A stretch of 64,000 nucleotides of DNA from an uncultured Dechloromonas sp. (GTDB lineage: Bacteria > Pseudomonadota > Gammaproteobacteria > Burkholderiales > Rhodocyclaceae). Below, in pieces: positions 4,927-51,818 of the stretch. Location: assembly GCF_945957265.1 (NCBI RefSeq), contig NZ_CAMFKO010000013.1, positions 35,467 through 99,466 on the forward strand, written 5' to 3'. Below the pieces are notes generated by a model. The model saw only the letters and a list, made by a program, of their open reading frames with translations, was not told where the DNA came from and did not search any database. The translations under genes were made by a program, and so were the position numbers. The first letter of the stretch is position 1, and every line of letters starts with the position of its first letter.

Positions 4927-4962
4927 AAGAAGTCGTCGAGATAGGCGTCTATGCACCGAAGC

Positions 4963-8084: not shown

Positions 8085-8096
8085 GCTTTGCTACTC

Positions 8097-12000: not shown

Positions 12001-12002
12001 GA

Positions 12003-13037: not shown

Positions 13038-13043
13038 ATGATT

Positions 13044-13883: not shown

Positions 13884-13899
13884 GGCAACCTGTCCTGTG

Positions 13900-15054: not shown

Positions 15055-16144
15055 CGGTATTTTCCTTGCTGAGTGATTGTTGCGGCGAAGCGGGGTTTTG
15101 CTTGAAAATTTGTTGCAGCAAGGCAAGCGTGGTGCTGTTAATGCGTTCCAGTTGCGCCAAACTGCTTTCAAGCCGTGCCAGGCGCGCGGAAACATGTTCT
15201 GCATTAAGGGTGGCAATCAGCTCATGTGGGTTGTTTTGATAGCTGATCGATGCGGCCAGCGGATTCAGGCCGGTACTCCCGTCTGGGCTCTCCAGGAGTT
15301 GCTGGGCGCTGATCTGCGTCGTGCCGCCAATGGTCTCTTCGAATATTTCCTTGGCAACTTCGTCGACATCGTGAGCATCGAACGATTTCTGATTGTTGAG
15401 GAAGCCAAAGAGCAACAAACGATCGCAAACCGAATTAATGCGCCGCGGGATGCCACTGCTGGCCTTGAATATCGATTCGAAGGCGGCAGCGGAGAGTTCG
15501 GGTAAGCCCGCTCGCGCCCCTGCCATCTTTAAGCGATGTTCGATATATCCCTGCGTTTCCGTCATATCCAACGGGCCGATATGGCAGGCCGCAATGACCC
15601 TCTGGCGAAACTGCATCATGTGAGGGCTTTGCAGAATTTGCCTGAATTCGGGCTGGCCGATCAGGAAACTCTGCAACAACGCCTGATTTCCGTATTGGAA
15701 ATTGGATAGCATGCGCAACTCTTCGACAGCACGGGCCGTCAGATTCTGTGCTTCGTCCACCACCAGCAGGCAACGCTTGCCCTTGGTCGCCATGCTGATC
15801 AGGAAGGCTTCAAGAGACATCAGTACATCGGACTTGGCTACATCTTTCGTGCGCAAGCCAAACGCAGCCCCAACGAGACGCAAGGTGTCGTCGGCATCGA
15901 GTTGAGTGCTCACCAACTGAGCAGCAATGACCTTTTCCGCATCAAGACCTTCCAGAAGGCCGCGAACGATGGTCGTCTTTCCCGCGCCTACTTCACCCGT
16001 AATGACAATAAACCCTTCATTCTGGTGCATGCCATATTCGAGATAGGCTTGCGCTCGGCGATGCTGCTTGCTGCTGAAATAGAACGTTGGGTCCGGGTTT
16101 AGCTGGAAGGGTTTGCTCTTTAGTTCAAAAAAAGACTCGTACAT
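15047..16144 (-). CDS. XrtA/PEP-CTERM locus-associated secretion ATPase (ExeA-like)
   Basis: This 365-aa AAA+ ATPase starts MYESFFELKSKPFQLNPDP, the classical N-terminus of ExeA/MshM-like ATPases. It has Walker A VITGEVGAGKTTIVRGLL at about residue 50 and Walker B CLLVVDEAQNLTARAVEEL at about 125. A C-terminal extension (from about residue 300, HVSARLARLESSLAQLERIN) looks coiled-coil. The family is constant in exosortase A loci and is thought to power or regulate assembly of the export apparatus; the exact role is unknown. It follows the outer-membrane-like protein gene by 4 nt. Confidence 0.9.
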   Translation of the reverse strand: MYESFFELKSKPFQLNPDPTFYFSSKQHRRAQAYLEYGMHQNEGFIVITGEVGAGKTTIVRGLLEGLDAEKVIAAQLVSTQLDADDTLRLVGAAFGLRTKDVAKSDVLMSLEAFLISMATKGKRCLLVVDEAQNLTARAVEELRMLSNFQYGNQALLQSFLIGQPEFRQILQSPHMMQFRQRVIAACHIGPLDMTETQGYIEHRLKMAGARAGLPELSAAAFESIFKASSGIPRRINSVCDRLLLFGFLNNQKSFDAHDVDEVAKEIFEETIGGTTQISAQQLLESPDGSTGLNPLAASISYQNNPHELIATLNAEHVSARLARLESSLAQLERINSTTLALLQQIFKQNPASPQQSLSKENTDV

Positions 16145-16148
16145 ACCG

Positions 16149-17789
16149 TTAGTAAATGAACGAAATTGTGCCGATCAGGGCGTTTTCGGTATAAGGATTG
16201 GTTGGTGTGTCGAATTTCGTATGGCGTACCGATATCGAACCGGATGTTCGCGGCCCGAGCTTCGACATCAAGCTTCCCTGATACATGGTGGTCGTGACTT
16301 TCTGAATCGTGGTGCCGGCACCGATGCTTTCCTGACGGGATGCCATCAATGTGGCATTTGATTCACCGGTGAGTTGATGAGAAAAGTTTACGATTACTCC
16401 CCGTTGCTTGATGCTGTTGGTATTGTTGATGGAGAAGTCATCGCTAACGGTGTCGTTGGCAAGAATGGTTTGGTTCTCGTTCCGGTTAAACATAACCGTG
16501 AGCGTGTTTCTGGCCCCTTGCATGGCCAATGTAAGCTGTTGCCGGCGCTGAATCGTGGCTCGCGAGGTCAGGAAACTGCTCGTAGCTTGTGTGTTGCCCG
16601 GAATGCCAAATGCCGAAAGAAATGCATTCGCAAGCTTGGTGGCTTCTATGTCCAATTGGACGGGGTTGGGGTATTGGCTGGCGAGCAGTTGGCTGAATAA
16701 CTGCTTCCATTGATCAAACACGGTTCCACGTCCGACCGTCGCGAACTGATTCGGCAATACGGACACGTCTTTGGAGTCGGAAAAACTGATCGTACTTAAA
16801 GGGAAACGATGGCTGAAAGTGTAGCGGTGTCCGTCTCCGAAGAAGCGCCGTTCCTTGAATCCGGAAATCTGGGTGCGTTCTGTGGGGTTCCAGTCAAAGC
16901 CATAGCCATGGGTCGTGTGATTCTCTTTTTCTGCGGAAGCGAAGTTATTGGCCTCCTGACCACCACTAAGCGTTAGCCTGAGTTGGGGAATTACCGTATA
17001 GGTGGCGGATGCAGATAGTCGTTCCGAGTCTGTTTGACGTCCTCGACTGTAGTCCGCAGTCTGCTGGGAAGCATCCAGTGACCAGCGGAGGCTCTGAAAC
17101 GGCGTGCTTCCTCGTAACTGCCCGGTCCACTCGGAGATATCAATATCCGAGGTATTGGATACGCTCGTCTGCGTTGTCGAGTAGTTGTAACGAACGATAT
17201 ATTCGGCGAGGCCAGCCAATTGGCCGCGTATATACGGAGACAGTCTGTAGCTCGAGGTTTCGGTCGCGTTGCTGTTCAGATTGGCTGAGCTGGGAGACTG
17301 GGTCCCAAAGGCAGAAATGGACTGCTGGGCAATAATGCCGCTGAAGTCGAGGTACAGCCAGTTGGATACCGCTTCAAGTGTGCCGAATGTATTCAGTTGG
17401 TTCTGGGTTCGGCTGTATCCGGAAGGCGTCGTATAGAACTGTCCGCGCAAGGTGTAATCGAAGTACCCCTTCAAGCGGGCTGTTCGTGCATCTATCTGCA
17501 CACCCGGGGCGACTTCGGTAATGAAACCGCTATCCTTCGTACCGTTTATGCGGGCGAGCGAAACATTGTCGCTCCAGGTCTCCGATAGCGAAAGTCGTGG
17601 TTTGATCGAGAAGGCACGTCCGTCGCCACCGCCCAAATTGCCTTGGGAAAGAAAACCCGGTTGCATTGCCGATGAGGGGAGCGACGCTTCAGGGGAGGGG
17701 CTTTGTGCATGGAGTTGTGCCGAACATATCGACGTTGTTACCAGCAGCCACCGGCAATATTGCGAGGTGGATGTGCGATCAAGCTTCAT
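16149..17789 (-). CDS. TIGR03016-like PEP-CTERM system-associated outer-membrane beta-barrel protein
   Basis: This 546-aa protein has an N-terminal signal peptide (CRWLLVTTSICSAQLHAQ). A long series of alternating amphipathic strands follows, such as FDYTLRGQFYTTPSGYSRT and LRLTLSGGQEANNFA. The C-terminus is aromatic, ENALIGTISFIY, as in outer-membrane barrels. This fits the uncharacterised PEP-CTERM system-associated family (pepcterm_hypo_1), which by position may be the outer-membrane porin for the polysaccharide (inference). ATG 17789 overlaps the kinase 3' end by 11 nt and places the signal peptide correctly. Confidence 0.82.
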   Translation of the reverse strand: MKLDRTSTSQYCRWLLVTTSICSAQLHAQSPSPEASLPSSAMQPGFLSQGNLGGGDGRAFSIKPRLSLSETWSDNVSLARINGTKDSGFITEVAPGVQIDARTARLKGYFDYTLRGQFYTTPSGYSRTQNQLNTFGTLEAVSNWLYLDFSGIIAQQSISAFGTQSPSSANLNSNATETSSYRLSPYIRGQLAGLAEYIVRYNYSTTQTSVSNTSDIDISEWTGQLRGSTPFQSLRWSLDASQQTADYSRGRQTDSERLSASATYTVIPQLRLTLSGGQEANNFASAEKENHTTHGYGFDWNPTERTQISGFKERRFFGDGHRYTFSHRFPLSTISFSDSKDVSVLPNQFATVGRGTVFDQWKQLFSQLLASQYPNPVQLDIEATKLANAFLSAFGIPGNTQATSSFLTSRATIQRRQQLTLAMQGARNTLTVMFNRNENQTILANDTVSDDFSINNTNSIKQRGVIVNFSHQLTGESNATLMASRQESIGAGTTIQKVTTTMYQGSLMSKLGPRTSGSISVRHTKFDTPTNPYTENALIGTISFIY

Positions 17790-18738
17790 GTTTCTGCCCA
17801 TATCCATAGCCATATCCGTAGCCATAGCCGTCTGCTTTATCAGCGCGAACCTGATTCAGTACCATCATCTTTACCGGGCAGGCATCGATTGTTGTAATGG
17901 CTTGTTTCACTGCAGCTTGCGCAGTGTTTTCAGCGTTCACGACGATCACGACCTGTCCCATATGTGTTGCGAGCACACGGGCCTCGGTGGTCAACAAGAG
18001 CGGCGGCGAGTCAAAGATGATGATTCGATCGCTGTAACGACTGGACATGTCCTCAAGCAGGCGAATCATGGTGTCGCTGGCTAGCAATTCCGTGGCACGA
18101 GGGTGCGGGGTTCCGCTGGGAAGAATGGATAGCTTTTCGATGTTGGTGCGTAGCAGGGCACCGGAAATATCCAGCGAGTTTTCCTTCAGGACGTCGAGAA
18201 GGCCTGCGCTTTGGGGGAGACCAAGCATGTTGAGCACCGATGGCCTCGCTACGTCCGCGTCGACAAGCATGACGGTATTGTCGAGTTCCATTGCGATGCT
18301 GATCGCCAAATTGATCGCGGTAAAACTTTTGCCTTCGCCGGGCAGAGCGCTGGTAACCATGATGAGGTTGCCGTTTGGTACGGCAGAACCACTGCGCCCC
18401 ATGGCATTTGCAATCAGGGGGCGCTTGATTACGCGGAATTCGTCGGCCAATTGATTGCGTGCGGCATGGGGTACTAGCAAGCCCGATGCCGCAATGGTCT
18501 CGAGATTCAGAACGATTGATTTGCTGGCGCGTGTTTCGACCTCGGCGGGCTTCTCCTCGGGTTGGCGGACAACGGCTTTTTCCCGTGTTTCGGATGCATC
18601 GGCGGGGAGAGGAGGCTTGAATATCGATTTATCTGTCTGGCCCAGCTTGGGTTCGAGTTTTGCTTCGTCCGACGGCAATTCGACGCCCGCTTGGCGTAGC
18701 TGTTCAAGGCGCTTGGCGGCTTGTTCTATTAGACTCAT
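17779..18738 (-). CDS. Exopolysaccharide/PEP-CTERM locus tyrosine autokinase
   Basis: This 319-aa bacterial tyrosine kinase has the separate-domain architecture, with chain-length partner and kinase as two genes. It has Walker A VTSALPGEGKSFTAINLA, Walker A' VMLVDADVARPSVLNML and Walker B IIIFDSPPLLLTTEA. The C-terminal tail is a pure Tyr-Gly run (residues 304-314), the likely autophosphorylation cluster. Phosphorylation cycles of such kinases control polymer length with the adjacent chain-length determinant. It begins 9 nt after that gene. The tail is encoded by a 6-nt repeat that could vary in copy number. Confidence 0.93.
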   Translation of the reverse strand: MSLIEQAAKRLEQLRQAGVELPSDEAKLEPKLGQTDKSIFKPPLPADASETREKAVVRQPEEKPAEVETRASKSIVLNLETIAASGLLVPHAARNQLADEFRVIKRPLIANAMGRSGSAVPNGNLIMVTSALPGEGKSFTAINLAISIAMELDNTVMLVDADVARPSVLNMLGLPQSAGLLDVLKENSLDISGALLRTNIEKLSILPSGTPHPRATELLASDTMIRLLEDMSSRYSDRIIIFDSPPLLLTTEARVLATHMGQVVIVVNAENTAQAAVKQAITTIDACPVKMMVLNQVRADKADGYGYGYGYGYGQKHEA

Positions 18739-18747
18739 TTTTCAACC

Positions 18748-20307
18748 TCAGTTAGCGCGTTGGGCAAGGAAGACAAGTGATCCAATTCCCGCCAAATACG
18801 CCAAGAAGAGCCCGGACAGAGCCATCAGGAAACGACGAAGGCTGGCACGTTCCTTCAGTTTTCTTGCATCATTTGGAATAAGGGAGACGGAGCCGATAAT
18901 CGGAAGGTCGACGGCATCCCGCAAGGTCTTGCTGTCAAAAAAGACAGGACGAACCTGACTTGCTGCAAAAGCCACAAACAGTCCGCCGGCAACAGCCAGG
19001 AGCAAACCGAGAGGAAGGAGCATCAGACGGTTTGGCGCAACAGGTTTGTTCGATGAGCGCGGTGGATCTATCAAGCGAAAGTCGGCCATCGACCCCGCAG
19101 TATCGAGATCCACGGTCAACTCGGCAGAGTCACGCCTGGCAACCAGTTGTTCATAGTTGCGCTTGTCGAGCTCATAGTCACGATTCAGTTGAGTCAGTTC
19201 GGCTTCCAACTGCGGTTGATTTTTCATCAATCCAGTTGTGCGCTTGTATCGTTCTTCGTACTCGCTGACACGGGCTCGCAGCGAGGCCGCGCTTGCTTCT
19301 GCTTCGGCAAGGGAAACCTTGAGCTGCTGGTAAACGGGATTGTTGCTGACCGACGCACCGGGATTGGCTGCCGCATACTTTTTCCGAGCTTGTATTTCCT
19401 GGCGTTTCTGTTCCTCCAGGTCTTTGATCAAGCGACGAGTACCCACGACATCGGGGTGTTGTTCCGTGTAGCGTTGAAGGAGGGTGTCGAGGCTGCGTTT
19501 TTGCGTGTCGATCCGCCCGTCAATCTCGGGAAGCGAGATGGTCGAATCGCCCACCGAAGAGTCCGGGAGCAATACCGGTTCTTCCCCGGCAATCTGACGG
19601 CGCAGCGCATCTCTTGATTGCTCCGCTTCCCTCAGTTGAAGGCGGGCGGCACTGAGTTGAGTGGAGAGTTCACCGAGACGATCAACGCCGCTTCTGCCCT
19701 CGGCTGTGGCGAGTTCAATATTGCGTAGCTTGAACTCTTTCAATCGATTTTCAGCGCTCTCCAGCTTTTTTTCATAATTCCGGATTTGTTCCTCAAGAAA
19801 CTTGCGGGCGGAGTCCGTGTCTTGACGCTTATCCCCCAGGCTGGATTCAATAAAAATCGAAACGAGTGCCTGTACCACGCGCTGAGCCTTGGCAGGGTCG
19901 GGGTCGCGAAAGGAAATCGTGTAAAGATTGTCGCGGCCGATACCTTGTATTTTCAAGGTGGTCGTCAATTCCTCGATCAACGCTTCTTGTTGAGTCTTGT
20001 TTTTGATATTTAAATCCAAATCCGCCATCCGGATCAGTTTTTCGATGTTCGGGCGACTGATCAGCGTGCGGCTCAGCATCATGATTTGTTGTTCGATGTT
20101 TGGCTGAACGGCGAGGCCAGACATCAGAGGCCGCAATATTGATTGCGTATCTACATAGATTCGGGCCGAGGCTTCAAATTGGTTGGGGATGCGCAAAATC
20201 ACCCCTGCGGCAATGATCCCAATGATCCATGCTGTCAGCATGCCGAGGCGCCTGTGCTTCCAGGTTGCGCGAAGGACCGTTAATGCCTGTCGAAGAATTT
20301 CTTCCAT
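18748..20307 (-). CDS. Polysaccharide chain-length determinant, PEP-CTERM locus subfamily
   Basis: This 519-aa polysaccharide co-polymerase of Wzz/GumC type has membrane segments near residues 23-40 and 425-450. A large periplasmic coiled-coil region lies between them (for example NYEKKLESAENRLKEFKLRN and SLAEAEASAASLRARVSEYE). A third hydrophobic stretch at the very C-terminus (MALSGLFLAYLAGIGSLVFL) is usual for this subfamily. It spans the inner membrane and periplasm and links polymerase, kinase and export channel. It is separated from the upstream export gene by a terminator-like hairpin. Confidence 0.92.
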   Translation of the reverse strand: MEEILRQALTVLRATWKHRRLGMLTAWIIGIIAAGVILRIPNQFEASARIYVDTQSILRPLMSGLAVQPNIEQQIMMLSRTLISRPNIEKLIRMADLDLNIKNKTQQEALIEELTTTLKIQGIGRDNLYTISFRDPDPAKAQRVVQALVSIFIESSLGDKRQDTDSARKFLEEQIRNYEKKLESAENRLKEFKLRNIELATAEGRSGVDRLGELSTQLSAARLQLREAEQSRDALRRQIAGEEPVLLPDSSVGDSTISLPEIDGRIDTQKRSLDTLLQRYTEQHPDVVGTRRLIKDLEEQKRQEIQARKKYAAANPGASVSNNPVYQQLKVSLAEAEASAASLRARVSEYEERYKRTTGLMKNQPQLEAELTQLNRDYELDKRNYEQLVARRDSAELTVDLDTAGSMADFRLIDPPRSSNKPVAPNRLMLLPLGLLLAVAGGLFVAFAASQVRPVFFDSKTLRDAVDLPIIGSVSLIPNDARKLKERASLRRFLMALSGLFLAYLAGIGSLVFLAQRAN

Positions 20308-43326: not shown

Positions 43327-44184
43327 TCAGTTCAGGGTGGCGGACAGCTTGCGGCGGAATTCGCGGACGAGATCGTCGTACTGCTCGCCGGAAAGCGCCT
43401 CGAACAGCGCCAGGATGGCCTTGCGGGCCGCACCCTCGTTGAAGAAGCGGTCGCGGCGGGCGACTTCGAGGGCAGCCTCGAGCGCTTCACGGAAGCGGCT
43501 TTGCGCGGCGTAGGCCTTGGAGAGTTCGAGGCGGGTGGCGTGATCGTCCGGGTCGGCCACCAGCCTGGCTTCCAGCGGGGCGGTATCGGCGGCGCCGTCG
43601 AGCAGGGCCAGGCGCGCGCGCAGGGTGTTGGCGCGGTCCGGCTCGTTGGCGTAGTCGCCGGCCAGCAACTGCTTGGCTTCGTCGTTGCGGCCCAGTTGCA
43701 TCAGCACATCGACGGCGTCGAGCTGGATCGCCTGATCCTGCGGGTTGGCCTGGCTGGCCTGGACCAGCGCGGCGAGCGCTTCTTCCAGCTTGCCCTCGGC
43801 AACCAGGGCGGCGGCCTGCTCGCGCAGGTTGGCCTGCTCCGGCCCGGCGGGCAGCGCGATGCGCTCGAGGAATTCGCGGATCTGCCCTTCCGGCAGGGCG
43901 CCGTTGAATTCGTCGACCAGCTGGCCCTGGAACAGCACCTTGACCGACGGAATGCTGCGCACGCCGAAATGCTGGGCGAGTTCCGGGTTTTCGTCGGAAT
44001 TGACCTTGGCCAGGATGAAGCGGCCCTTGAACTCCTCGGCCAGCTTCTCCAGCATCGGCTTGAGGACCTTGCACGGTTCGCACCACGGCGCCCAGAAATC
44101 GACGACGACCGGCACGGTCTCGGCCGGGATCAGGACTTTGGCTTCGAATTCTTCGATGGAAACGTCAAATGCAAATTCGGACAT
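43327..44184 (-). CDS. cnoX: Thioredoxin-domain co-chaperone with TPR region (CnoX/YbbN-like)
   Basis: This 285-aa protein has an N-terminal thioredoxin fold with active site DFWAPWCEPCKVLKPMLEKL (CEPC instead of CGPC) and the cis-Pro loop FGVRSIPSVKVLFQGQLVDE. From about residue 120 a TPR-like helical domain follows (LVAEGKLEEALAALVQASQA, ALEAALEVARRDRFFNEGAA). YbbN/CnoX acts as a redox-dependent holdase that passes clients to chaperones. It starts 17 nt after the ketosynthase-like gene of the lipid cluster, so it may be read from the same transcript. Confidence 0.88.
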   Translation of the reverse strand: MSEFAFDVSIEEFEAKVLIPAETVPVVVDFWAPWCEPCKVLKPMLEKLAEEFKGRFILAKVNSDENPELAQHFGVRSIPSVKVLFQGQLVDEFNGALPEGQIREFLERIALPAGPEQANLREQAAALVAEGKLEEALAALVQASQANPQDQAIQLDAVDVLMQLGRNDEAKQLLAGDYANEPDRANTLRARLALLDGAADTAPLEARLVADPDDHATRLELSKAYAAQSRFREALEAALEVARRDRFFNEGAARKAILALFEALSGEQYDDLVREFRRKLSATLN

Positions 44185-44201: not shown

Positions 44202-44876
44202 TTAAAGTCGGGCGAATTCTACCGCCAGTCGCGGGCTGGTGGCGGCGTGCAGGTAAAAGGATGACGCGCGGCCGGTATCCAGCCATTCGCGCAGGTGTGC
44301 CGGGAAGTCCGGCGTATCCGCTTGCCCCGCCGGTGCCGGCAGGCTTGCCGGCTGCAGGCGGCCCAGCGCCGTGGCCGCCGGCCCGGTGCCGAGGGCCAGC
44401 CAGCGGCCGCTTGCCGCATCGGGCCAATGGTCGAGCTGGGCGCACAGCACCTGCGCGCAGCGGCCCTGATCCAGCCACCGGCAGGCCAGGGCGAGCAGCA
44501 TGCTCCAGTTGGCGCTGTTTTCGCCGTCCAGCGGCAGGTGCGTGGCCGAGCGCAGGCCGGGCAGGAAGGGCTGGATCTGCGCCGCGGCCAGGGCCGGCTG
44601 GGTGGCCAGGAAGTCGTAGGGCATCGGTTCGCCGCCGCCCAGGCAGACCTCGTCGAGCAGGTTCAGGGTTTCCAGGCGCGGGCCGCTGGTCGATTGCCAG
44701 AGCAGAATGGTCGGCTGCCGGCGTTGTTCTTCGGTGAGGCAGGCGCAGGCGCCGGTCAGCGCCAGTTGGGTCAGCGCCGCCGCCCGGCGCAGGGGTTTGC
44801 CGATGGCTGACCGAACCGCGTTCGGCAAGGCATCCGGTGCGAAATCCTGGCTGACGACAGCGTTGAGGAAAACCAT
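44202..44876 (-). CDS. Ketosynthase-like protein without active-site Cys (Ketoacyl-synt_2/chain-length-factor type)
   Basis: This 224-aa protein matches only the N-terminal thiolase half. It has PTILLWQSTSGPRLETLNLL, then PYDFLATQPALAAAQIQPFL and ENSANWSMLLALACRWLDQG, where a nucleophile-bearing elbow would be expected; no Cys is at that place. Such short proteins are annotated as beta-ketoacyl synthase chain-length factors in aryl-polyene and resorcinol clusters. Its start codon shares one base with the stop of the full ketosynthase gene, implying a stoichiometric partner. It is the last gene of the putative lipid operon. Confidence 0.7.
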   Translation of the reverse strand: MVFLNAVVSQDFAPDALPNAVRSAIGKPLRRAAALTQLALTGACACLTEEQRRQPTILLWQSTSGPRLETLNLLDEVCLGGGEPMPYDFLATQPALAAAQIQPFLPGLRSATHLPLDGENSANWSMLLALACRWLDQGRCAQVLCAQLDHWPDAASGRWLALGTGPAATALGRLQPASLPAPAGQADTPDFPAHLREWLDTGRASSFYLHAATSPRLAVEFARL

Positions 44877-45955
44877 CAGCTGCGCTCCACGAGCAGGCTG
44901 GCCAGGCCGCCGCCGAAGCCGACCAGGTTAAGCAGGGCGCGGCGGACGACAGCCTGCGAACGCACGGTGAGCGGGGCCAGGCCGATGTCGGCATCCGGTT
45001 CGCCGTAGTTGGCGGTGGCCGGAATCTGCCCGGCGTCGAGGCTGGCGATCAGGGCGGCCAGTTCGGCGATGCCGCTGGCGCCCAGCGTGTGGCCGAGGGC
45101 CGGTTTCAGCGACAGCAGGGGCGGCATGACCTCGGCGAAGACCTGGCGCAGGGCGTTGGCTTCGGCCAGGTCGCTGCCCGGCGAACCGGCGGCCTGCAGC
45201 TTGACCAGGTCGATGGCGGCGGGCGGAGTGTCGGCCGCCTGCAGGGCCTCGCGCATCACGCCGGCAATCGGCCCGCCGTCCGGATCGGGGCCGGTCGTCG
45301 AATAGGCATCCAGACCGCTGGCGATGCCGGCGATTTGCCACGGGCCGGGCGCGGCGGACAGCCTGACGGCGGCGACCGCTTCGCCCAGCACCAGGCCGTC
45401 GCGGCGGGCGTCGAACGGCCGGCAGGCGGAGCGGGAGAGCAGTTCCATGGCGGCGAAGCCGGCCAGCGTGCTGGCGTTGGCCAGTTCGACGCCGACGACG
45501 ATGGCTTCGTCGATCAGCCCCGCCGAAATCAGCGTGGTGGCCGCGTCGATGGCCGAGAAGCCGGAGGTGCAGGCCGTCGAGAAACTGCTGCGCGGACCGG
45601 TGAGGGTCAGCCAGTCGGCGATCTGCCGGCTGAACGAGGCGCTGCCGACGGGCATGTCGAATGGGGCGCCGCGTTGCTCGAAGAGGCCGACCTGGAAGGA
45701 CGACGAGGCGACGAACAGCGGCGTTTCCGGCGCGTACGGCCCGAGTTGCGCGCCGACATGGCGCACCGCCCTTTCGGCGCGCAGGAGCCAGTCGGGCTCG
45801 GCCAGCGGTAGGGCGAAATAGGGGAAGTACCGCTCGCCCAGGAGGCGCTCACCGGCAGTGCATTCGCCCGCCCACAGCGCATCGCCGACGGCGGCAGGGG
45901 AGTCGCCGCGGGCGCAGAGCAGGCCGCTGGCGACGATATGGAGCGGTCGCTGCAT
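44876..45955 (-). CDS. Beta-ketoacyl-ACP synthase (FabB/FabF-like) with first catalytic His replaced by Ala
   Basis: This 359-aa thiolase-fold enzyme has the nucleophile elbow SSFSTACTSGFSAIDAA (Cys129) and the second His in LKPALGHTLGASGIAEL (His289). The first His, normally in a SHGTST-like loop, is Ala256 in VKLQAAGSPGSDLAEANAL; this was checked at the base level. A C-terminal NLVGFGGGLASLLVE loop is intact. ATG 45955 starts 8 nt after the ACP gene; a longer in-frame extension is low-complexity and unlikely. Decarboxylating condensation normally needs both His, so it may be a decarboxylation-impaired or transferase-like synthase. Confidence 0.85.
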   Translation of the reverse strand: MQRPLHIVASGLLCARGDSPAAVGDALWAGECTAGERLLGERYFPYFALPLAEPDWLLRAERAVRHVGAQLGPYAPETPLFVASSSFQVGLFEQRGAPFDMPVGSASFSRQIADWLTLTGPRSSFSTACTSGFSAIDAATTLISAGLIDEAIVVGVELANASTLAGFAAMELLSRSACRPFDARRDGLVLGEAVAAVRLSAAPGPWQIAGIASGLDAYSTTGPDPDGGPIAGVMREALQAADTPPAAIDLVKLQAAGSPGSDLAEANALRQVFAEVMPPLLSLKPALGHTLGASGIAELAALIASLDAGQIPATANYGEPDADIGLAPLTVRSQAVVRRALLNLVGFGGGLASLLVERS

Positions 45956-45963
45956 CGCTGCGC

Positions 45964-46233
45964 TCAGCCCCGGCTGGCCAGCCAGCCTTCCAGGTGCTCG
46001 GCCAGGTTGGCGACGTTGCTCAGGATGCGCCGGGTTTCCTTGCTGTCCGGCAGGCGCAGGCCGTATTGCTTCTTGATCGCCATCGAGACTTGCAGCGCGT
46101 CGAGCGAATCGAGCTGGAGCGGGGCTTCCGGGCCGAACAGCACGTCGTCGTCGGCGATGCTGGCCGGGTCGCAATCCTTGTCGCAGGCTTCGACGATCAG
46201 GGCTTTCAGGGCAAGACGGAGTTCGGCGCTCAT
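45964..46233 (-). CDS. Acyl carrier protein
   Basis: This 89-aa four-helix carrier has the phosphopantetheine attachment motif PLQLDSLDALQVSMAI (Ser43) in an acidic context. It resembles the carriers of secondary lipid clusters more than FabC-type AcpP, with Lys/Arg-rich helix III (KKQYGLRLPDSKETRR). The ATG overlaps the permease stop by 4 nt. It would hold the beta-ketoacyl chains for the adjacent ketosynthases and for the DarB-like enzyme. A separate ACP points to a dedicated pathway rather than normal fatty-acid synthesis. Confidence 0.9.
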   Translation of the reverse strand: MSAELRLALKALIVEACDKDCDPASIADDDVLFGPEAPLQLDSLDALQVSMAIKKQYGLRLPDSKETRRILSNVANLAEHLEGWLASRG

Positions 46234-47444
46234 GCGGATTGACGGTGGTTGAGCCAGATCGCGGCAGCCAGGGCGGCGACCGCGAAGGCGAGCAGTTGGA
46301 GAAGGACGGGCAGGATAGCGGCGAACCCGTCGTGGCGCAGCATGACCGTGTGGAAACCCTGCAGCCCCCAGGCCATGGGCGAAAACTCGGCCAGCGTCTG
46401 CATGGCGGCCGGCATCATGAACTTGGGGACCATGATGCCGCCGATGGCGCCCATCAGGATGTTGCCGACGCCGCCGACGATGGTCGCCTGCTGCGTCGTC
46501 CTGGCCAGGCTGGCGACGAGCAGGGCGCAGGCGACGGCGGCCAGGCTGACCGCCATCGACACCAGCCACCAGTGCACCAGGCCCATCCCCTGGGGCATGA
46601 CCAGGGCTTCGCCGCCGAACAGCGGCACGACGAACAGGCCGACGCCGACCATCAGCACGGCCTGGATCTGGTTGACGATGAAAAAGGGCAGCAGCTTGCC
46701 CAGCAGCACCAGCCGGAAAGGCAGGCCCATGGCGGCGAGGCGGCTCAGCGTGCCCTGCTGGCGCTCGACGATCAGGATGGCGGAAATCGGGATGACCACG
46801 AAGAACATGGCGAAGACCAGCCAGGCCGGCACGTTCTGCTGCACGGACGAGGGCGGGCGGATGCTGCGGTCGTTCTGCACGGCGACGGTGACGATCTCGT
46901 CGGGCCACTCGCGGTCCGGCGCGTTGGCGGCCACCGGCAGGCCGAACAGCTTGCCGGCCTGGCGCGTCAGTTCGTCGGCGCGCAGGGTGCCCAGCGCGGC
47001 GCTGGTCTGGGTGCGGAAAGCCAGTTGCAGCGCGGGGTTCAGGGTCGGATCGACGAACAGGCCGAGCGGTTCGGTCGGCTGGCCGTCGGCGCCGCCGGGA
47101 GCGAGCAGGCGTTCGCCGAAGCCCTTGGGCAGCACCAGGACCAGCGCGTAGCGGCCGTCTCGGATGGCTTGCCGGGCGGTGTCGGGATTGTCTGCGCTGG
47201 CGACGTGGCGGAAACTGCCGGCCTTGTTCAGCCGGCGGACCAGGGATTGCGAATGCGGGCTGTGGTCGAGATCGACGATGGCATAGCCGACGTCGATCGC
47301 CGCGCCGGGCATGAAGGCGTCGTGCAGCGCCATGGTCATGACCAGGATGAAGATGATCGGCATCGCGAACAGGGCGGCCAGGCCGTGCCGGTCGCGGAGC
47401 AGGGCCAGGGTTTCCTTGCGCCACAGGGCAATGAGTCGGGTCAT
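46230..47444 (-). CDS. ABC-2 type transporter permease
   Basis: This 404-aa membrane protein has one N-terminal helix (HGLAALFAMPIIFILVMTMA), a long periplasmic domain (about residues 45-195) and then five or six helices (WLVFAMFFVVIPISAILIVE through LPVLLQLLAFAVAALAAAIW). This is the layout of YhhJ/YbhS-like exporters of lipids or drugs. The sequence VERQQGTLSRLAAMGLPFRL is the typical cytoplasmic coupling segment. It starts 3 nt after the ATPase gene and overlaps the ACP gene by 4 nt. Placed between ACP and acyltransferase genes, it probably exports the cluster product. Confidence 0.9.
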   Translation of the reverse strand: MTRLIALWRKETLALLRDRHGLAALFAMPIIFILVMTMALHDAFMPGAAIDVGYAIVDLDHSPHSQSLVRRLNKAGSFRHVASADNPDTARQAIRDGRYALVLVLPKGFGERLLAPGGADGQPTEPLGLFVDPTLNPALQLAFRTQTSAALGTLRADELTRQAGKLFGLPVAANAPDREWPDEIVTVAVQNDRSIRPPSSVQQNVPAWLVFAMFFVVIPISAILIVERQQGTLSRLAAMGLPFRLVLLGKLLPFFIVNQIQAVLMVGVGLFVVPLFGGEALVMPQGMGLVHWWLVSMAVSLAAVACALLVASLARTTQQATIVGGVGNILMGAIGGIMVPKFMMPAAMQTLAEFSPMAWGLQGFHTVMLRHDGFAAILPVLLQLLAFAVAALAAAIWLNHRQSA

Positions 47445-47447
47445 GGC

Positions 47448-48359
47448 TCAGTCCCGCAGCGAGCGCCGGGTCAGGCGCATGAAGAGGTGTTCGAGGTTTT
47501 CGCGGCCGACCTTCAGTTGCTGCACGGCGCAGCCGGCGGCGGCCAGGTCGTCGAGCAGGCGGGGCAGGGCGGCCGGCGTCGCCAGCTTGAGGCGGTAGTG
47601 CAGGCCGCCTTCGCCGACGGCCGCGTGGCGGGCGGCCAGTTCGGCCGGCAGTTCGGCGCCCAGCTCCAGTTCGACGACCGACTCGTCGCAGCGCAGCAGG
47701 GCATCCAGGGCGCCTTCGCTCAGCACCTTGCCCTGGTCGACGATGGCGACGCGCTGGCAGATGGCCTCGACCTCTTCCATGTAGTGGCTGGTGTAGATGA
47801 CGGAGGTGCCGCTGGCCGGCAGGCCGGCGATGGCGTCGAGCAGGAAGCGGCGCGATTGCGGGTCGACGCCGACGGTGGGTTCGTCGAGGAGCAGCAGTCG
47901 CGGACGGCCGAGCAGGCCGATGGCCAGGTTCAGGCGCCGGCGCAGGCCGCCGGAGAGCTGTTCGGCCGGCTTGCGCGTGACCTGCTCGAGGCGGGCGAAG
48001 GCAATGGCCGACTCGATCTGCGCCTGCCGCTCGCGTCGCTCTAGGCCGAGCGCGCCACCGAAGAAATCGAGGTTTTCGGCGACGGTCAGCATCGGGTAGA
48101 AGGCGTAGTCCTGCGGTACCAGCGCGATGGCGCGCGGCTCGGCGGCGCGGGCCTCGGCCAGCGGGCGGCCGTTGAAGGTGATGCGGCCGCCGGTTGCCGT
48201 CTGCAGGCCGGCGAGGATGGAGATCAGCGTCGTCTTGCCGGCGCCGTTGGGGCCGAGCAGGCCGTAGACGCCGCCGGCCGGGATGTCCAGCGTGACACCG
48301 TCGAGCGCCGGGGTGCCGGCATCCCGGTAGCGAAAGGAAACGCCGTCGATGCGCAGCAT
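47448..48359 (-). CDS. ABC transporter ATP-binding protein (ABC-2 exporter)
   Basis: This 303-aa ATPase has Walker A GLLGPNGAGKTTLISILAGL, Q-loop VPQDYAFYPMLTVAENLDFF, signature LSGGLRRRLNLAIGLLGRPR, Walker B LLLLDEPTVGVDPQSRRFLL and the H-loop SVIYTSHYMEEVEA. The C-terminal about 80 residues form the accessory domain of drug- and lipid-exporting ABC-2 ATPases. ATG 48359 shares a base with the BtrH-like gene stop; an in-frame extension upstream has no family-like sequence. It is the partner of the next permease. Confidence 0.93.
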   Translation of the reverse strand: MLRIDGVSFRYRDAGTPALDGVTLDIPAGGVYGLLGPNGAGKTTLISILAGLQTATGGRITFNGRPLAEARAAEPRAIALVPQDYAFYPMLTVAENLDFFGGALGLERRERQAQIESAIAFARLEQVTRKPAEQLSGGLRRRLNLAIGLLGRPRLLLLDEPTVGVDPQSRRFLLDAIAGLPASGTSVIYTSHYMEEVEAICQRVAIVDQGKVLSEGALDALLRCDESVVELELGAELPAELAARHAAVGEGGLHYRLKLATPAALPRLLDDLAAAGCAVQQLKVGRENLEHLFMRLTRRSLRD

Positions 48360-49348
48360 CAGGCGGCGCGGCGCAGGTCGCGGAAGAAGGCCTGCTCGCG
48401 GTCGGCGATGGCGCGCAGCTTGTCGGCCAGCTTCGGCGGCTGCAGCGGGTCGCGGTCGCGGATCATGCGCGCCGTGGCCAGCGCGAATTCCCGCCATTCG
48501 TCGCCGATGTCGATCAGTTGCTCGGCCAGTTCGCCCAGCGCCGGGCGCTTGAGCAGGTCGGCCGCCTCCTGCAGGAAGCTGGCGTAGATGAAGCGGAAAC
48601 CGCCGCCGCCGGTGCCGATTTCCTCCTGCATGCGCACGACCTGGCCGATGAACATCTTGCTGTGCGCAGCGCCGTCGCCGGCATCCAGCTTCTCGATGGC
48701 CTTGGCCAGCCAGCGGATGCCGCGCACGCCGATGATCGGCAGCGGGGCATCGAGCATGATGCGCGTCGTCTTCCTGATGGCGGCGGGCAGGACCTTGTGC
48801 CAGTCCGGCGTCTGCGGCGTGCCGACCGGGTAGTAGAGCAGGCCCTTGGGAGCGAGCGCGCCCTTGGCGAAACGGGCGCGCTGCAGGTCGGCCGGCGGGC
48901 AGGTGACGAGCGTTTCGGCCACCGGGTCGGACAGCCGGTAGTCGCCCGACGCTTCACGGCCGCAGGCCAGCACGTTGTGGGCGTTGAAGTGGAAGCGCAG
49001 GTCTTCCGGCAGGTAGGGCAGCCAGAAGACGGAGGTCTGCAGGCCGACCAGCTTGCCCTGGTCGAGCAGTTCGTTCAGGCGGGCGACGCCGGCGGCCGGA
49101 TTGCCGAAGGTCTCGAAGCGCATCTTCAGGCCGAGCGGTTTCTGCAGGCCCTTGATGATGGCCTTGGGCGGCATCCGGTAGGCGACCAGCGGCAGGCCGT
49201 TGATCTTGATGATCGGCAGGTAGGCGAAGGAGAGCGCCGACGACAGGCCGAAGGTCATCGGCTCGGAGAGCGGCAGCCCGTGGTGGCGCAGCAGCGTCGA
49301 CATGACGCCGCTTTCGCAGTGGGAAGCCTGGCTGTGCTGGAAGTCCAT
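48359..49348 (-). CDS. BtrH-like acyltransferase (BtrH N-terminal and DUF4872 domains)
   Basis: This 329-aa protein has a papain-like C39 fold. The N-terminal nucleophile is Cys11 in QASHCESGVMSTLLRHHG, with a probable His124/Asp141 pair in RFHFNAHNVLACGREASG and YRLSDPV. The second half is helical (FRFIYASFLQEAADLLKRPA), matching DUF4872. BtrH of butirosin synthesis transfers an acyl chain from an ACP to an aminoglycoside amine, so this enzyme may move the lipid chain from the nearby ACP to an acceptor. ATG 49348 overlaps the upstream stop by one base (TGATG). The acceptor is unknown. Confidence 0.82.
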   Translation of the reverse strand: MDFQHSQASHCESGVMSTLLRHHGLPLSEPMTFGLSSALSFAYLPIIKINGLPLVAYRMPPKAIIKGLQKPLGLKMRFETFGNPAAGVARLNELLDQGKLVGLQTSVFWLPYLPEDLRFHFNAHNVLACGREASGDYRLSDPVAETLVTCPPADLQRARFAKGALAPKGLLYYPVGTPQTPDWHKVLPAAIRKTTRIMLDAPLPIIGVRGIRWLAKAIEKLDAGDGAAHSKMFIGQVVRMQEEIGTGGGGFRFIYASFLQEAADLLKRPALGELAEQLIDIGDEWREFALATARMIRDRDPLQPPKLADKLRAIADREQAFFRDLRRAA

Positions 49349-49743
49349 CAGTCGGTCTTTTTCAGTTGCTCGACGCTGAGGCCCATGGCGTCGGCGTAGG
49401 TCGCCAGCAGGGCCGGCGACAGCCGGGCGAAAACGGCCGGCCGGAAATGCCGGCGGATGCGCCATTGCCAGATGCCGCTGGCCTGCGCCAGCAGCGGCAC
49501 GTCCATGCGCACCCGGTACATGTGGTATTCGAGCGCCGAGGTCTGGCCGGCGAGCACGCGTTGACGGGCGTCTTCGGTCAGGCGAAGGAGGTCGTCGACG
49601 GCCTGCTTGGTGACGATTTCCTCGACCTCCCAGCCGGCCGACTGGACGATGTGCAGCTTGCCGTCGGCGCCGCGCGCGTACATCGCCTTGCGATGGCCGC
49701 CCAGCGTGCTGTTGCCTTCCTGCGGGACTTCGCTATCCAGCAT
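49348..49743 (-). CDS. Uncharacterised 131-aa protein of the resorcinol/BtrH operon
   Basis: I do not recognise a family. The protein is soluble and has a short beta-rich start (RKAMYARGADGKLHIVQSAG, WEVEEIVTKQAVDDLLRLTE). A helical second half follows, with LEYHMYRVRMDVPLLAQASG and many Arg/His (IWQWRIRRHFRPAVFARLSP). No signal peptide, Cys pair or catalytic motif is evident. It is locked between darB-like and btrH-like genes with overlaps on both sides (11 nt and 1 nt), so it is almost certainly part of the pathway, perhaps a subunit or adaptor. Confidence 0.75.
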   Translation of the reverse strand: MLDSEVPQEGNSTLGGHRKAMYARGADGKLHIVQSAGWEVEEIVTKQAVDDLLRLTEDARQRVLAGQTSALEYHMYRVRMDVPLLAQASGIWQWRIRRHFRPAVFARLSPALLATYADAMGLSVEQLKKTD

Positions 49744-50884
49744 GGTCGACGGCCGTCAGGTGCATCAGCGAGCCGGTGAAGCGGCCGCTTTCCGGCACGA
49801 AGCAGAGCAGGCGGTCGCCAGCCTGCAGGCGGCCGCTGCGGAAGAGTTCGTCGAGGATGATGAAGATTGACGCCGAGCCGGTATTGCCCTTGGTCTGCAG
49901 GTTGGTGAACCACTTTTCCGGGGCGATGGCGAAATCGGCACCGGCCATGTAGGCGGCCAGCGGCTGCCGGAAATATTCGGAGGACATGTGCGGCAGGAAC
50001 CAGTCGATCCCCTCGGCGGCCAGGCCGCGTTCGGCCCGCGCCTTGGCCAGCGGCTTGCCGAAGGTCTGCTCGACGATGGCCTCGTTGAGCAGGCGGACAT
50101 CCTGCTTGACCATGAAGATGGACTGCTCGGTCCATTCATTGGCGGCATATTCCTGCCAGCCGCGGAAGCGGCCGTCGGGTGCCTTGTCGCCGCCGGCGTA
50201 CATGCACACCGGCATGCTGTCGGCCTGCGACTGGATGTCGATCCAGTCGATGCGCAGCGACAGGCCGGCGCGGCGCGGCGCGTCCTCGACCAGGAAGGCG
50301 CCGGCGCCGTCGGACAGCATCCAGCGCAGGAAATCCTTCTCGAAGGCGATTTCCGGATTGTCTTCCAGTTCGCCGACGCGGTGCGCCGACTCCGGCTCGT
50401 AGTGGCGGGCGAGCAGGCCGCCCGAGGCGCGCTCCGAGCCGCTGGCCACGGCCTTGCCGGCCAACCCGGCCATCACGGCCATGGCGGCGTATTTCAGGGC
50501 GCTGATCCCGGCCGCGCAGATGCCGGCCGTCGACACCACCTCGCAGGGCGGGATGCGCAGTTCGCCGTGCACCATCACCGCATGGCTGGGCATCAGCTGG
50601 TCGGGACAGGAGGTGCCGCAGGCCAGCACGTCCGGCGCACCGGCATCCAGCCGGCGAATGGCCTCGGCGGCGAGCGCCGCGTTGGAGTGGGTGAAGGCGC
50701 CGGTGGCCGGGTCGATGGCGTAGTGCCGGCTGCGGATGCCATTGTTGCGCAGCACGACGCGCCGGGCGCGCGACGGTTTGCCGGCGATCATGCCGAGCAC
50801 CTGTTCGATATCGTCGTTGGCTACCGGCGCGTTGGGCAGAAAGGAAGAGGTGCCGGTGATGTAGGCACTACCGCGACTGGTCAT
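49733..50884 (-). CDS. darB: Beta-ketoacyl-ACP synthase III family, DarB-like
   Basis: This 383-aa ketosynthase has the KAS III triad: Cys123 in EVVSTAGICAAGISALKYAA, His299 in DWFLPHMSSEYFRQPLA and Asn334 in NLQTKGNTGSASIFIILDEL. The N-terminus AYITGTSSFLPNAPVANDDI and overall length fit DarB-type synthases, which join two beta-oxoacyl chains to a cyclohexanedione. Coupling to a DarA-like gene (17-nt overlap) supports that reading over fatty-acid initiation by FabH. In transcription order it is the second gene of the operon. Confidence 0.85.
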   Translation of the reverse strand: MTSRGSAYITGTSSFLPNAPVANDDIEQVLGMIAGKPSRARRVVLRNNGIRSRHYAIDPATGAFTHSNAALAAEAIRRLDAGAPDVLACGTSCPDQLMPSHAVMVHGELRIPPCEVVSTAGICAAGISALKYAAMAVMAGLAGKAVASGSERASGGLLARHYEPESAHRVGELEDNPEIAFEKDFLRWMLSDGAGAFLVEDAPRRAGLSLRIDWIDIQSQADSMPVCMYAGGDKAPDGRFRGWQEYAANEWTEQSIFMVKQDVRLLNEAIVEQTFGKPLAKARAERGLAAEGIDWFLPHMSSEYFRQPLAAYMAGADFAIAPEKWFTNLQTKGNTGSASIFIILDELFRSGRLQAGDRLLCFVPESGRFTGSLMHLTAVDHAG

Positions 50885-51818
50885 ATTTTTCTAGATTGAA
50901 TTCCTCGGACCCGCTCGGCAGTTCCAGCTGAGCGCGCAGCCCCTCCAGGCGCGATTTCAGCAGCGGGGAAAGCAGCCATTGTAACAATAGGCTGGTCGGA
51001 ACGACCGTCAATACCATCACAATCAGATAAACGGAAAATACCAGGAGGATGGGGCGCCGCCGCCAGCTGCCGCGTCGACCGCAGGCGCGGATCAGCCGCG
51101 ACCAGACGCCGAAGGCGCGGCGGCCGGCGCGTTCGCTGATCGCCAGGCGGGGATTGACGGTCACGGCACGCAGGCCGGTGAGCATGGGCTGGCCGGATTT
51201 TTCGGCATTGCGGTCCAAGGCATCGGCCAGGGCGCGGCCGAAGCGGCTGGCTCCGAGGATTTCCTCCGGGGCGACGCCGGCCGGCGGCAGGCCGAAAAAG
51301 CGGTCGCGCTGGCCGGTCAGCACCCAGCGCGGGGTGGTGATGAAGGTGGCCAGCGGATGGCCGCGGTCGGTGAAGGCCAGGTGGTCGCACAGCTTGCCGC
51401 CGGCCTCGGTGATCAACTTCTGCATGGTTTCCTGGGCCGACAGCCACATGTTGCGGCAGGCGACCAGGGTGACGACCGGCTTGCCGCGGATCAGGCGTTT
51501 TCCTTCATTACTGTGCAGGAAGGCGGTGATCGGCAGGGCGGGCGACAGGAACCAGACCTGGTAGCACAGGATGACCAGGTCGAAGTCGGCATCGGCGGCA
51601 AGGCTCAGCGGCTGGAGCGGCGGCGCGTCGCCTTGCACGCACTCGGGCATGGCGTCGACGAAATCGACGATGGGCCACGGGAACGGGTAGGGCGTGGCCG
51701 GGACCAGGGTTTCCACATGCACCCGATGGCCGGCTTCGCGCAGCGGACCGGTCACTTGCGCGGCGATGTCGGAAAGCTGCCCGGTTTGCGAGTAATTGAC
51801 GACGAGAACCTGCTTCAT
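50868..51818 (-). CDS. darA: Dialkylresorcinol condensing/aromatising enzyme, DarA-like flavodoxin protein
   Basis: This 316-aa protein has an N-terminal flavodoxin-like fold: MKQVLVVNYSQTGQLSDIAA contains the phosphate-binding loop, and DLVILCYQVWFLSPALPITA the second loop. A membrane-type helix lies near the C-terminus (ILLVFSVYLIVMVLTVVPTS). This combination is typical of DarA, which with DarB forms the resorcinol ring; it probably oxidises the cyclohexanedione using FMN. It is the first gene of the run and is divergent from pyrG, 157 nt apart, so the operon promoter should lie in that gap. Confidence 0.85.
   Translation of the reverse strand: MKQVLVVNYSQTGQLSDIAAQVTGPLREAGHRVHVETLVPATPYPFPWPIVDFVDAMPECVQGDAPPLQPLSLAADADFDLVILCYQVWFLSPALPITAFLHSNEGKRLIRGKPVVTLVACRNMWLSAQETMQKLITEAGGKLCDHLAFTDRGHPLATFITTPRWVLTGQRDRFFGLPPAGVAPEEILGASRFGRALADALDRNAEKSGQPMLTGLRAVTVNPRLAISERAGRRAFGVWSRLIRACGRRGSWRRRPILLVFSVYLIVMVLTVVPTSLLLQWLLSPLLKSRLEGLRAQLELPSGSEEFNLEKYDQSR

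What the first reader, a model, noticed from the sequence alone, without database searches (positions are those of the whole stretch)
44202..51818. Nine-gene operon for an unusual resorcinol-type lipid with its own ACP, BtrH-like acyltransferase and exporter
Seen: nine minus-strand genes from DarA-like to a ketosynthase-like protein overlap or lie within 8 nt of each other. The order is DarA-like, DarB-like, 131-aa orphan, BtrH-like/DUF4872, ABC ATPase, ABC-2 permease, ACP, ketosynthase, short ketosynthase-like protein. Known: DarA/DarB make dialkylresorcinols; BtrH moves acyl chains from ACP to an amine. Inference: a lipid chain is built on a dedicated ACP, cyclised to a resorcinol or cyclohexanedione, acyl-transferred by the BtrH-like enzyme and exported. 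I do not know this gene set as a described pathway. There is no ketoreductase or dehydratase, so chains must come from primary fatty-acid synthesis.
Basis: partly seen in the sequence, partly recalled or inferred. Interest (0 to 1): 0.8.

Follow-up and report, generated by a model that had tools for sequence, protein, structure and literature searches.

The report
Arcuflavin-type pigment gene cluster, resorcinol half
Nine tightly packed genes in a Dechloromonas-like bacterium match, gene for gene and in the same order, a locus published in 2014 for a yellow polyene-resorcinol pigment of Azoarcus, so they likely make the resorcinol half of such a pigment, and one of them is predicted to be the enzyme that joins the two halves, a step I found no experiment for in the papers I searched.

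Summary
In detail: nine minus-strand genes (44202-51818), each overlapping or within 8 nt of the next. The set is not undescribed: it matches, in order, darA-B-D-E-F-I-C-J-K of Azoarcus sp. BH72 (PMC3949708, which reports such clusters in Dechloromonas aromatica too). There it belongs with two polyene loci whose product, arcuflavin, is proposed to be an aryl polyene esterified to a dialkylresorcinol (DAR). The missing ketoreductase and dehydratase-type genes are in this same genome on another contig, with a XanB2-type chorismatase, a KS/chain-length-factor pair, an AMP ligase and an MMPL exporter. In one related genome polyene and dar genes form one cluster. New here: DarE (BtrH/DUF4872) has Cys, His and Asp identical in 69 of 69 aligned rows (67 distinct); over its cut-off it was found only in genomes with DarB, nearly always with polyene genes. 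DarK matches the ApeC chain-length factor by predicted fold and its Arg30-Arg31. DarJ has lost the HTGTG histidine (Gln in 27 of 42). DarD is predicted to be Xre/Cro-like. I propose that DarE makes the ester; against this, some genomes with DarB and polyene genes lack DarE. New member of a known kind, with a testable open step.

The parts
50868..51818 (-). darA, 316 aa, DAR aromatase/condensing protein by position and conservation
   Evidence: No NCBIfam, Pfam or PDB-sequence match; homologue at over 80% coverage in 75 of 87 loci examined, including Photorhabdus and Pseudomonas loci that lack darD/darE; named darA in PMC3949708 Table 1
49733..50884 (-). darB, 383 aa, StlD/DarB-family ketosynthase (DAR cyclase in the 2014 paper)
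   Evidence: NCBIfam NF005293 578 bits over cut-off 450; resorcinol_DarB 'exception' model 473.7, under its cut-off of 550; nearest solved structure StlD 5gk0 457 bits
49348..49743 (-). darD, 131 aa (NCBIfam 'DarG family'); C-terminal part predicted to have an Xre/Cro helix-turn-helix fold
48359..49348 (-). darE, 329 aa, BtrH_N + DUF4872 (NCBIfam 'DarH'), predicted ACP-dependent O-acyltransferase; Cys11, His120/His124, Asp141
   Evidence: NF053550 475 bits over cut-off 300; PF14399 154.9 and PF16169 189.5 bits; H5, H10, C11, E12, H120, N122, H124, S140, D141 identical in 69 of 69 aligned rows, 67 of them distinct
47448..48359 (-). darF, 303 aa, ABC transporter ATPase
   Evidence: PF00005 115 bits; not found in the cluster of G094
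46230..47444 (-). darI, 404 aa, ABC-2 type permease
   Evidence: PF12698 129.9 bits; not found in the cluster of G094
45964..46233 (-). darC, 89 aa, acyl carrier protein
   Evidence: PF00550 22.9 bits over cut-off 20.8; NCBIfam PRK09184 45.5 bits, under its cut-off of 70; L39-x-L41-D42-S43-x-D45 invariant in 46 aligned sequences
44876..45955 (-). darJ, 359 aa, ketosynthase; Cys129 and His289 kept, HTGTG histidine replaced by Gln254
   Evidence: PF00109 72.6 and PF02801 81.1 bits; best PDB match ApeO 6qsp_A, E 9.6e-32; Cys 42 of 42, second His 42 of 42, first position Gln 27 and His 15 of 42
44202..44876 (-). darK, 224 aa, predicted single-thiolase-fold chain-length factor like ApeC, with Arg30-Arg31

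Best explanation
The nine genes are the dar locus of an arcuflavin-type pigment pathway, which likely makes a dialkylresorcinol that the BtrH-like enzyme DarE is predicted to esterify with an aryl-polyene acid that would be made by a second gene set on another contig of the same genome. Shown: gene order and families; presence in the same genome of a polyene set (XanB2-type chorismatase, AMP ligase, KS plus chain-length-factor-type partner, ketoreductase, FabA-like protein, LolA and MMPL exporter). Known from the papers: DAR proteins of Azoarcus make a DAR in E. coli; arcuflavin of Azoarcus BH72 is a polyene-DAR hybrid proposed to be joined as an ester. Inferred: (1) DarB condenses two fatty-acid-type acyl intermediates and DarA aromatises the product to the DAR. 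(2) The finished polyenoyl chain is placed on the dedicated carrier DarC by DarJ-DarK, an ApeO/ApeC-like KS/chain-length-factor pair which in this lineage has lost the HTGTG histidine and would therefore transacylate rather than elongate. (3) DarE takes the chain from DarC onto Cys11, as BtrH-type enzymes use a carrier protein, and hands it to a phenolic OH of the DAR. (4) DarF-DarI would move the product or its lipid half across the inner membrane, with the polyene-side MMPL/LolA parts carrying it onward. DarD does not look like an enzyme by its predicted fold; it would be a regulator or a scaffold.
For: Same order as Azoarcus BH72 darA-B-D-E-F-I-C-J-K, which there differs only by a PilT/Phd-like pair between darF and darI. 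Polyene genes in the same genome: chorismatase PF21168, halogenase, MipA, acyltransferase, GT2, Na/H antiporter, ketoreductase, KS, Ketoacyl-synt_2 partner, AMP ligase 53% identical to that of G094, FabA-like, ACPs, polysaccharide deacetylase, LolA, MMPL. In G094 polyene and dar genes form one run of about 23 kb. DarE over cut-off in 18 of 369 class genomes, all 18 among the 21 with DarB over cut-off. Polyene-type MMPL exporter in 17 of 18 DarE genomes against 67 of 351 others (Fisher p 4e-11, not corrected for kinship); the 18th, G205, has an ArcJ-type KS and LolA_3. Among 120 relatives, 39 of 41 DarE genomes have the chorismatase, against 27 of 79 without DarE. Named genomes: exporter in 30 of 30 with DarE, 5 of 8 without. 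Active-site residues of DarE identical in 69 of 69 rows. BtrH_N proteins are papain-like and BtrH is an ACP:aminoglycoside acyltransferase (PMC10318531 passages).
Against: DarB plus polyene genes occur without DarE: G316, G223 and G339 all have the exporter and an ArcJ-type KS but no DarE, and so do Brenneria (G491) and two Pseudomonas (G492, G494). So having both halves does not predict DarE, and within DarB genomes the class sample gives no contrast (exporter in 17 of 18 with DarE and 3 of 3 without). Six of ten DarE-less genomes tested have the polyene KS; only the other four fit DAR alone, and all ten were picked for lacking darE. Some exporter matches in DarE genomes are weak (51 and 69 bits). 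The flexirubin paper proposes another enzyme, FlxW, a ligase-like protein, for the ester (PMC3992019 passages). Two DarE genomes lack the chorismatase (G009, 89% complete; G038, 83%). The relay role of DarJ is weak: 15 of 42 DarJ keep a His at that position, the Gln rows lie in one large clade with exceptions, and full-length DarK was recovered by similarity in only 14 of 87 loci, with partial matches in some others. No compound has been measured here.
Confidence: 0.72

Rival explanations
1. The locus makes a free dialkylresorcinol, or a different acylated resorcinol, exported by DarF-DarI, unconnected to the polyene; DarE acylates the DAR with an ordinary fatty acid from DarC.
For: DarB genomes without DarE and without a polyene KS exist, such as three Photorhabdus. 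The locus has its own ACP and exporter and lies on another contig than the polyene genes.
Against: DarE genomes carry the polyene-type exporter in 17 of 18 class genomes and in 30 of 30 named genomes searched, some weakly, and the XanB2 gene in 39 of 41 relatives; in G094 both sets are one cluster; the Azoarcus homologue belongs to a hybrid and no free DAR was detected there.
Confidence: 0.12
2. The ester is made by a ligase-like enzyme encoded elsewhere, as proposed for FlxW in flexirubin, or by DarJ-DarK acting as a ketosynthase-like acyltransferase, and DarE does something else such as proof-reading or release.
For: FlxW proposal in PMC3992019 (passages); DarB plus polyene genomes without DarE; DarJ keeps its Cys but has lost the HTGTG His and hits the acyltransferase subunit AmcF model under its cut-off (126.7 against 325).
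Against: DarE has Cys, His and Asp identical in 69 of 69 rows and belongs to an acyltransferase family, follows darB-darD in 67 of 80 loci, and over its cut-off was not found without DarB in the class sample.
Confidence: 0.2
3. DarJ-DarK-DarC build the acyl substrates that DarB condenses, rather than relaying the polyene.
For: KS, chain-length factor and ACP genes are packed with darA-darE; 15 of 42 DarJ keep a His at the decarboxylation position.
Against: Heterologous expression of darA and darB of Chitinophaga was reported to give a DAR (PMC3992019 passages); the window's DarJ has Gln there, and several darA-darB loci have no darJ or darC nearby.
Confidence: 0.25

Closest known systems
dar locus of Azoarcus sp. 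BH72 (azo0283-azo0293), arcuflavin pathway, PMC3949708
   Same: Same nine genes in the same order; the genome also has XanB2-type chorismatase, AMP ligase, KS pair, ketoreductase and exporter genes
   Different: No PilT/Phd-like pair between darF and darI; the two polyene gene groups lie about 11 kb apart on one contig here, while the two arc loci of BH72 are unlinked; an HPP/CBS membrane protein stands where BH72 has arcF; product not measured
Arcuflavin-like loci of Dechloromonas aromatica RCB, Variovorax paradoxus S110, Sideroxydans lithotrophicus ES-1 (PMC3949708)
   Same: Reported in the same paper as carrying both a polyene and a DAR cluster; the window's genome is close to Dechloromonas/Azonexus (DarB 95% identical)
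   Different: Their gene tables are supplements that I did not read
Flexirubin clusters (Chitinophaga pinensis flx/dar, Flavobacterium johnsoniae)
   Same: DarA/DarB and a polyene esterified to a DAR; NCBIfam DarG_fam covers DarD
   Different: Tyrosine-derived starter there; here a XanB2-type chorismatase points to hydroxybenzoate; flexirubin_DarG model not reached (119.8 against 170); ester enzyme proposed there is FlxW
ApeO-ApeC KS/chain-length factor of aryl polyene synthesis (6qsp, 7f28; PMC8358021)
   Same: DarJ best PDB match 6qsp_A; DarK model best matches 7f28_C and 6qsp_B; DarK profile aligns Arg30-Arg31 with ApeC of 7f28, residues described as conserved in ApeC (passages)
   Different: DarJ here lacks the HTGTG His; the elongating pair of this genome is more likely ArcK-ArcJ
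BtrH of butirosin synthesis
   Same: BtrH_N domain, papain-like acyl transfer from a carrier protein (by family; passages)
   Different: Acceptor there is an aminoglycoside; here a phenol is inferred

Membership tests
Arcuflavin-type dar locus | darA-B-D-E-F-I-C-J-K in this order | tested here: met
   against Table 1 of PMC3949708
Arcuflavin-type dar locus | Xanthomonadin-like polyene genes in the same genome (chorismatase, AMP ligase, KS, KR, DH, exporter) | tested here: met
   of the two dehydratase-type genes one is FabA-like (27.3 bits, cut-off 23), the other is assigned only by position and 47% identity to the G094 gene
Arcuflavin-type dar locus | Product is a polyene-DAR hybrid | not testable with these tools
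   Needs extraction and mass spectrometry
StlD/DarB family ketosynthase | NF005293 over curated cut-off | tested here: met
   578 against 450 bits
NCBIfam resorcinol_DarB (exception-level model) | Score over its cut-off of 550 | tested here: not met
   473.7 bits; so I file the protein under StlD/DarB, not under this model
FabH | TIGR00747 over cut-off | tested here: not met
   74.9 against 292.1 bits
DarH_acyl, BtrH-related acyltransferase | NF053550 over cut-off | tested here: met
   475.2 against 300 bits
BtrH-type papain-like acyltransferase | Conserved Cys, His, Asp | tested here: met
   C11, H120, H124, D141 in 69 of 69 rows; which His is catalytic, and whether they meet in space, was not determined
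BtrH proper | Acyl transfer to an amine from an ACP | not testable with these tools
   Acceptor cannot be read from sequence
Flexirubin DarG | NF053545 over cut-off 170 | tested here: not met
   119.8 bits; the wider DarG_fam is met at 173.6 against 70
Elongating ketosynthase (DarJ) | Cys-His-His | tested here: not met
   Cys129 and His289 present, first His is Gln254
ApeC-like chain-length factor (DarK) | Half-size single thiolase fold | tested here: met
   Predicted model only; two of five models score above 80, three near 50
ApeC-like chain-length factor (DarK) | Sequence relation to ApeC with Arg30-Arg31 | tested here: met
   Profile hit to 7f28_A, E 0.0017, Arg-Arg aligned; hhalign with this genome's own ArcJ and ArcK found nothing
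Xre/Cro helix-turn-helix (DarD) | HTH fold in a predicted model | tested here: inconclusive

The most novel reading that the evidence does not exclude
DarC, DarJ-DarK and DarE are a dedicated joining machine: a ketosynthase/chain-length-factor pair that has lost the ability to condense ferries the finished polyene from the polyene carrier to DarC, and a papain-like BtrH enzyme esterifies a resorcinol with it. This would be a BtrH-family enzyme making an aryl ester of a polyene, and a KS-CLF pair turned into a shuttle.
Probability: 0.3. Interest if true: 0.6.

Novelty: new member of a known kind. Interest (0 to 1): 0.38.

Why it matters
The locus itself was described in a relative in 2014, so its existence is not a surprise. 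What remains open, in the papers I could search, is which enzyme forms the polyene-resorcinol ester and what darC, darD, darJ and darK do. The co-occurrence, active-site and fold results name DarE as the candidate ester enzyme and DarJ-DarK as an altered ApeO-ApeC pair, which makes these roles directly testable with single deletions in a strain already known to make the pigment.

Tried and rejected
Rejected: FabH-like primary metabolism for DarB (score far under the FabH cut-off). Rejected: 'undescribed gene set'. Rejected as a clean test: LolA_3 as polyene marker, because it is weak and misses divergent clusters (15 of 18 DarE genomes against 52 of 351 others); the exporter profile A1 also gives weak matches (44 to 103 bits) in genomes where they may be other MMPL proteins, so I also used the ArcJ-type KS. 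A first count that L059 and L064 have darD but no darE was wrong at genome level: both genomes have DarE on another contig. The first family scans of darC (protein 7) used a start four bases off, so a wrong frame, and their 'no match' is void; repeat them in the right frame and find PF00550. hhalign of DarK with ArcJ, ArcK and DarJ found nothing (probabilities 0.1 to 2.5); the fold search and a PDB profile search found ApeC. No solved structure matches DarE by sequence (best E 0.18). DarE was not folded, because the two structure jobs went to DarK and DarD. The 14 papers on DAR, polyene and gene cluster since 2019 were seen as a listing with abstract starts only, as were those unless named as read; 'DUF4872' finds no paper; 'arcuflavin' finds 5. 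The library lacks most subscription papers, so an assignment of the ester enzyme may be in print elsewhere.
Full report
OBSERVATION. Nine minus-strand open frames fill 44202-51818 with overlaps of 17, 11, 1, 1, 4 and 1 nt and gaps of 3 and 8 nt. A codon-usage caller keeps these nine; five of them were in its training set, so it counts as independent only for the other four. The next gene downstream, a thioredoxin/TPR protein at 43327-44184, follows darK by 17 nt on the same strand, and CTP synthase lies upstream on the other strand.

WHAT THE GENES ARE. NCBIfam: DarB is StlD/DarB family (578 bits, cut-off 450); the 131-aa protein is DarG_fam (173.6, cut-off 70); the BtrH-like protein is DarH_acyl (475, cut-off 300). 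The stricter models resorcinol_DarB and flexirubin_DarG are not reached. Pfam adds BtrH_N, DUF4872, ABC ATPase, ABC-2 permease, ketosynthase and, for darC read in the right frame, the phosphopantetheine site PF00550 (22.9 bits, cut-off 20.8). DarA and DarK have no match in these two libraries. DarB's nearest solved structure is StlD, 457 bits. Names differ between sources: NCBIfam DarG and DarH are darD and darE of the 2014 paper, and I use the paper's names.

A DESCRIBED LOCUS. Table 1 of Schoner et al. 2014 (PMC3949708; I read the first part of the main text, most of Results, Discussion and the supplement list) lists darK, J, C, I, H, G, F, E, D, B, A of Azoarcus BH72 as hypothetical, ketosynthase, ACP, permease, PilT-domain, Prevent-host-death, ATPase, BtrH-like peptidase, hypothetical, DAR-cyclase and DAR-aromatase. 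Leaving out the PilT/Phd pair, this is the window's order. Insertion mutants in the two polyene loci lose a yellow pigment of m/z 608.386 whose fragments are a DAR and a polyene, proposed to be an ester. The paper also reports such pairs of clusters in Dechloromonas aromatica, Variovorax and Sideroxydans. It does not assign the ester-forming enzyme in the sections I read; the flexirubin paper suggests FlxW for that step (PMC3992019 passages).

LINKAGE. Nearest: Azonexus and Dechloromonas, 95% identity. B-D-E in order: 67 of 80; A-B-D-E-F-I-C-J: 35 of 80; all nine: 19 of 80. Twelve loci have at least 2.5 kb after darB and no darE in order there; two of these (L059, L064) have DarE elsewhere in the genome. 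The five Photorhabdus loci carry darB, and all but L066 a recognised darA, without darD/darE.

THE OTHER HALF IS IN THE SAME GENOME. A search for the chorismatase domain PF21168 found one match in the window's assembly, on contig C10. Around it: halogenase, chorismatase, MipA, acyltransferase, GT2, HPP/CBS protein, Na/H antiporter, then SDR ketoreductase, a 149-aa protein without a Pfam match, a Ketoacyl-synt_2 protein and a ketosynthase. About 11 kb further on begins a second group: polysaccharide deacetylase, MMPL exporter, LolA, lipid-A-type acyltransferase, FabA-like protein, AMP ligase, two ACPs and another ketosynthase. In genome G094, of another family of the order, polyene KS, KS partner, DH-position gene, KR, an ACP, darC-J-K-A-B-D-E, a methyltransferase, AMP ligase, exporter parts and halogenase-chorismatase-MipA-AT-GT form one run of about 23 kb in which no darF/darI was found.

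CO-OCCURRENCE. 120 relatives, own genome included: DarE in 41, chorismatase in 66; both in 39; chorismatase without DarE in 27. The two DarE genomes without it are 89% and 83% complete. 369 class genomes: DarB over cut-off 21, DarE over cut-off 18, all 18 within the 21, with at most about 1.6 kb between the two genes; three further DarE matches lie under the cut-off. Exporter profile at E 1e-15: 84 of 369, including 17 of 18 DarE genomes; the eighteenth, G205, has an ArcJ-type KS and LolA_3. Named genomes, 38 searched of 40 given (of 80 loci): exporter at E 1e-10 in 35; in 30 of 30 with DarE, the weakest at 51 bits, and in 5 of 8 without; the three lacking it are Photorhabdus. By these calls DarE over its cut-off was not found without DarB, and hardly ever without polyene genes. 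Against: three class genomes (G316, G223, G339) and three named ones (G491, G492, G494) have DarB and polyene genes but no DarE, so both halves can be present without it. Of ten DarE-less genomes tested, six have the polyene KS and four do not; they had been picked for lacking darE. Fisher values ignore kinship.

VERDICT. The locus is a new member of a known kind: the resorcinol half of an arcuflavin-type pathway. The steps 'DarE forms the ester' and 'DarJ-DarK relay' are inference, the first moderately and the second weakly supported.

Noticed in passing
window 43327-44184: Thioredoxin/TPR gene starts 17 nt after darK on the same strand; a homologue follows the dar locus in 13 of 84 loci searched, many of them cut, so it may share the transcript.
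   Followed up: partly
window 2385-20307: Lower-GC minus-strand exopolysaccharide-type region with exosortase EpsH, Wzz-like and O-antigen-ligase-like proteins, several glycosyltransferases and an asparagine synthase.
   Followed up: no
L089 and L090 (G094 contig C14, 1-40000): One compact cluster holding both polyene and dar genes, with no darF/darI found; a possible minimal set for expression studies.
   Followed up: partly
L049, L053, L058, L062, L063, L065, L069, L070, L072, L081: Pseudomonas-type and Pseudomaricurvus loci have darA-B-D-E on one strand and darJ-C-I-F on the other; the eight of their DarJ that were aligned keep the histidine.
   Followed up: partly
L088:3486-4628: An HPP/CBS-domain membrane protein stands where Azoarcus BH72 has arcF (annotated N-acetyl-gamma-glutamyl-phosphate reductase).
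   Followed up: no
G316, G223, G339: Genomes with DarB and polyene genes but no DarE: natural test cases for another joining enzyme or for separate products.
   Followed up: partly
L087:16462-18030: A B12-binding radical SAM protein lies shortly before the polyene halogenase gene; role unknown.
   Followed up: no
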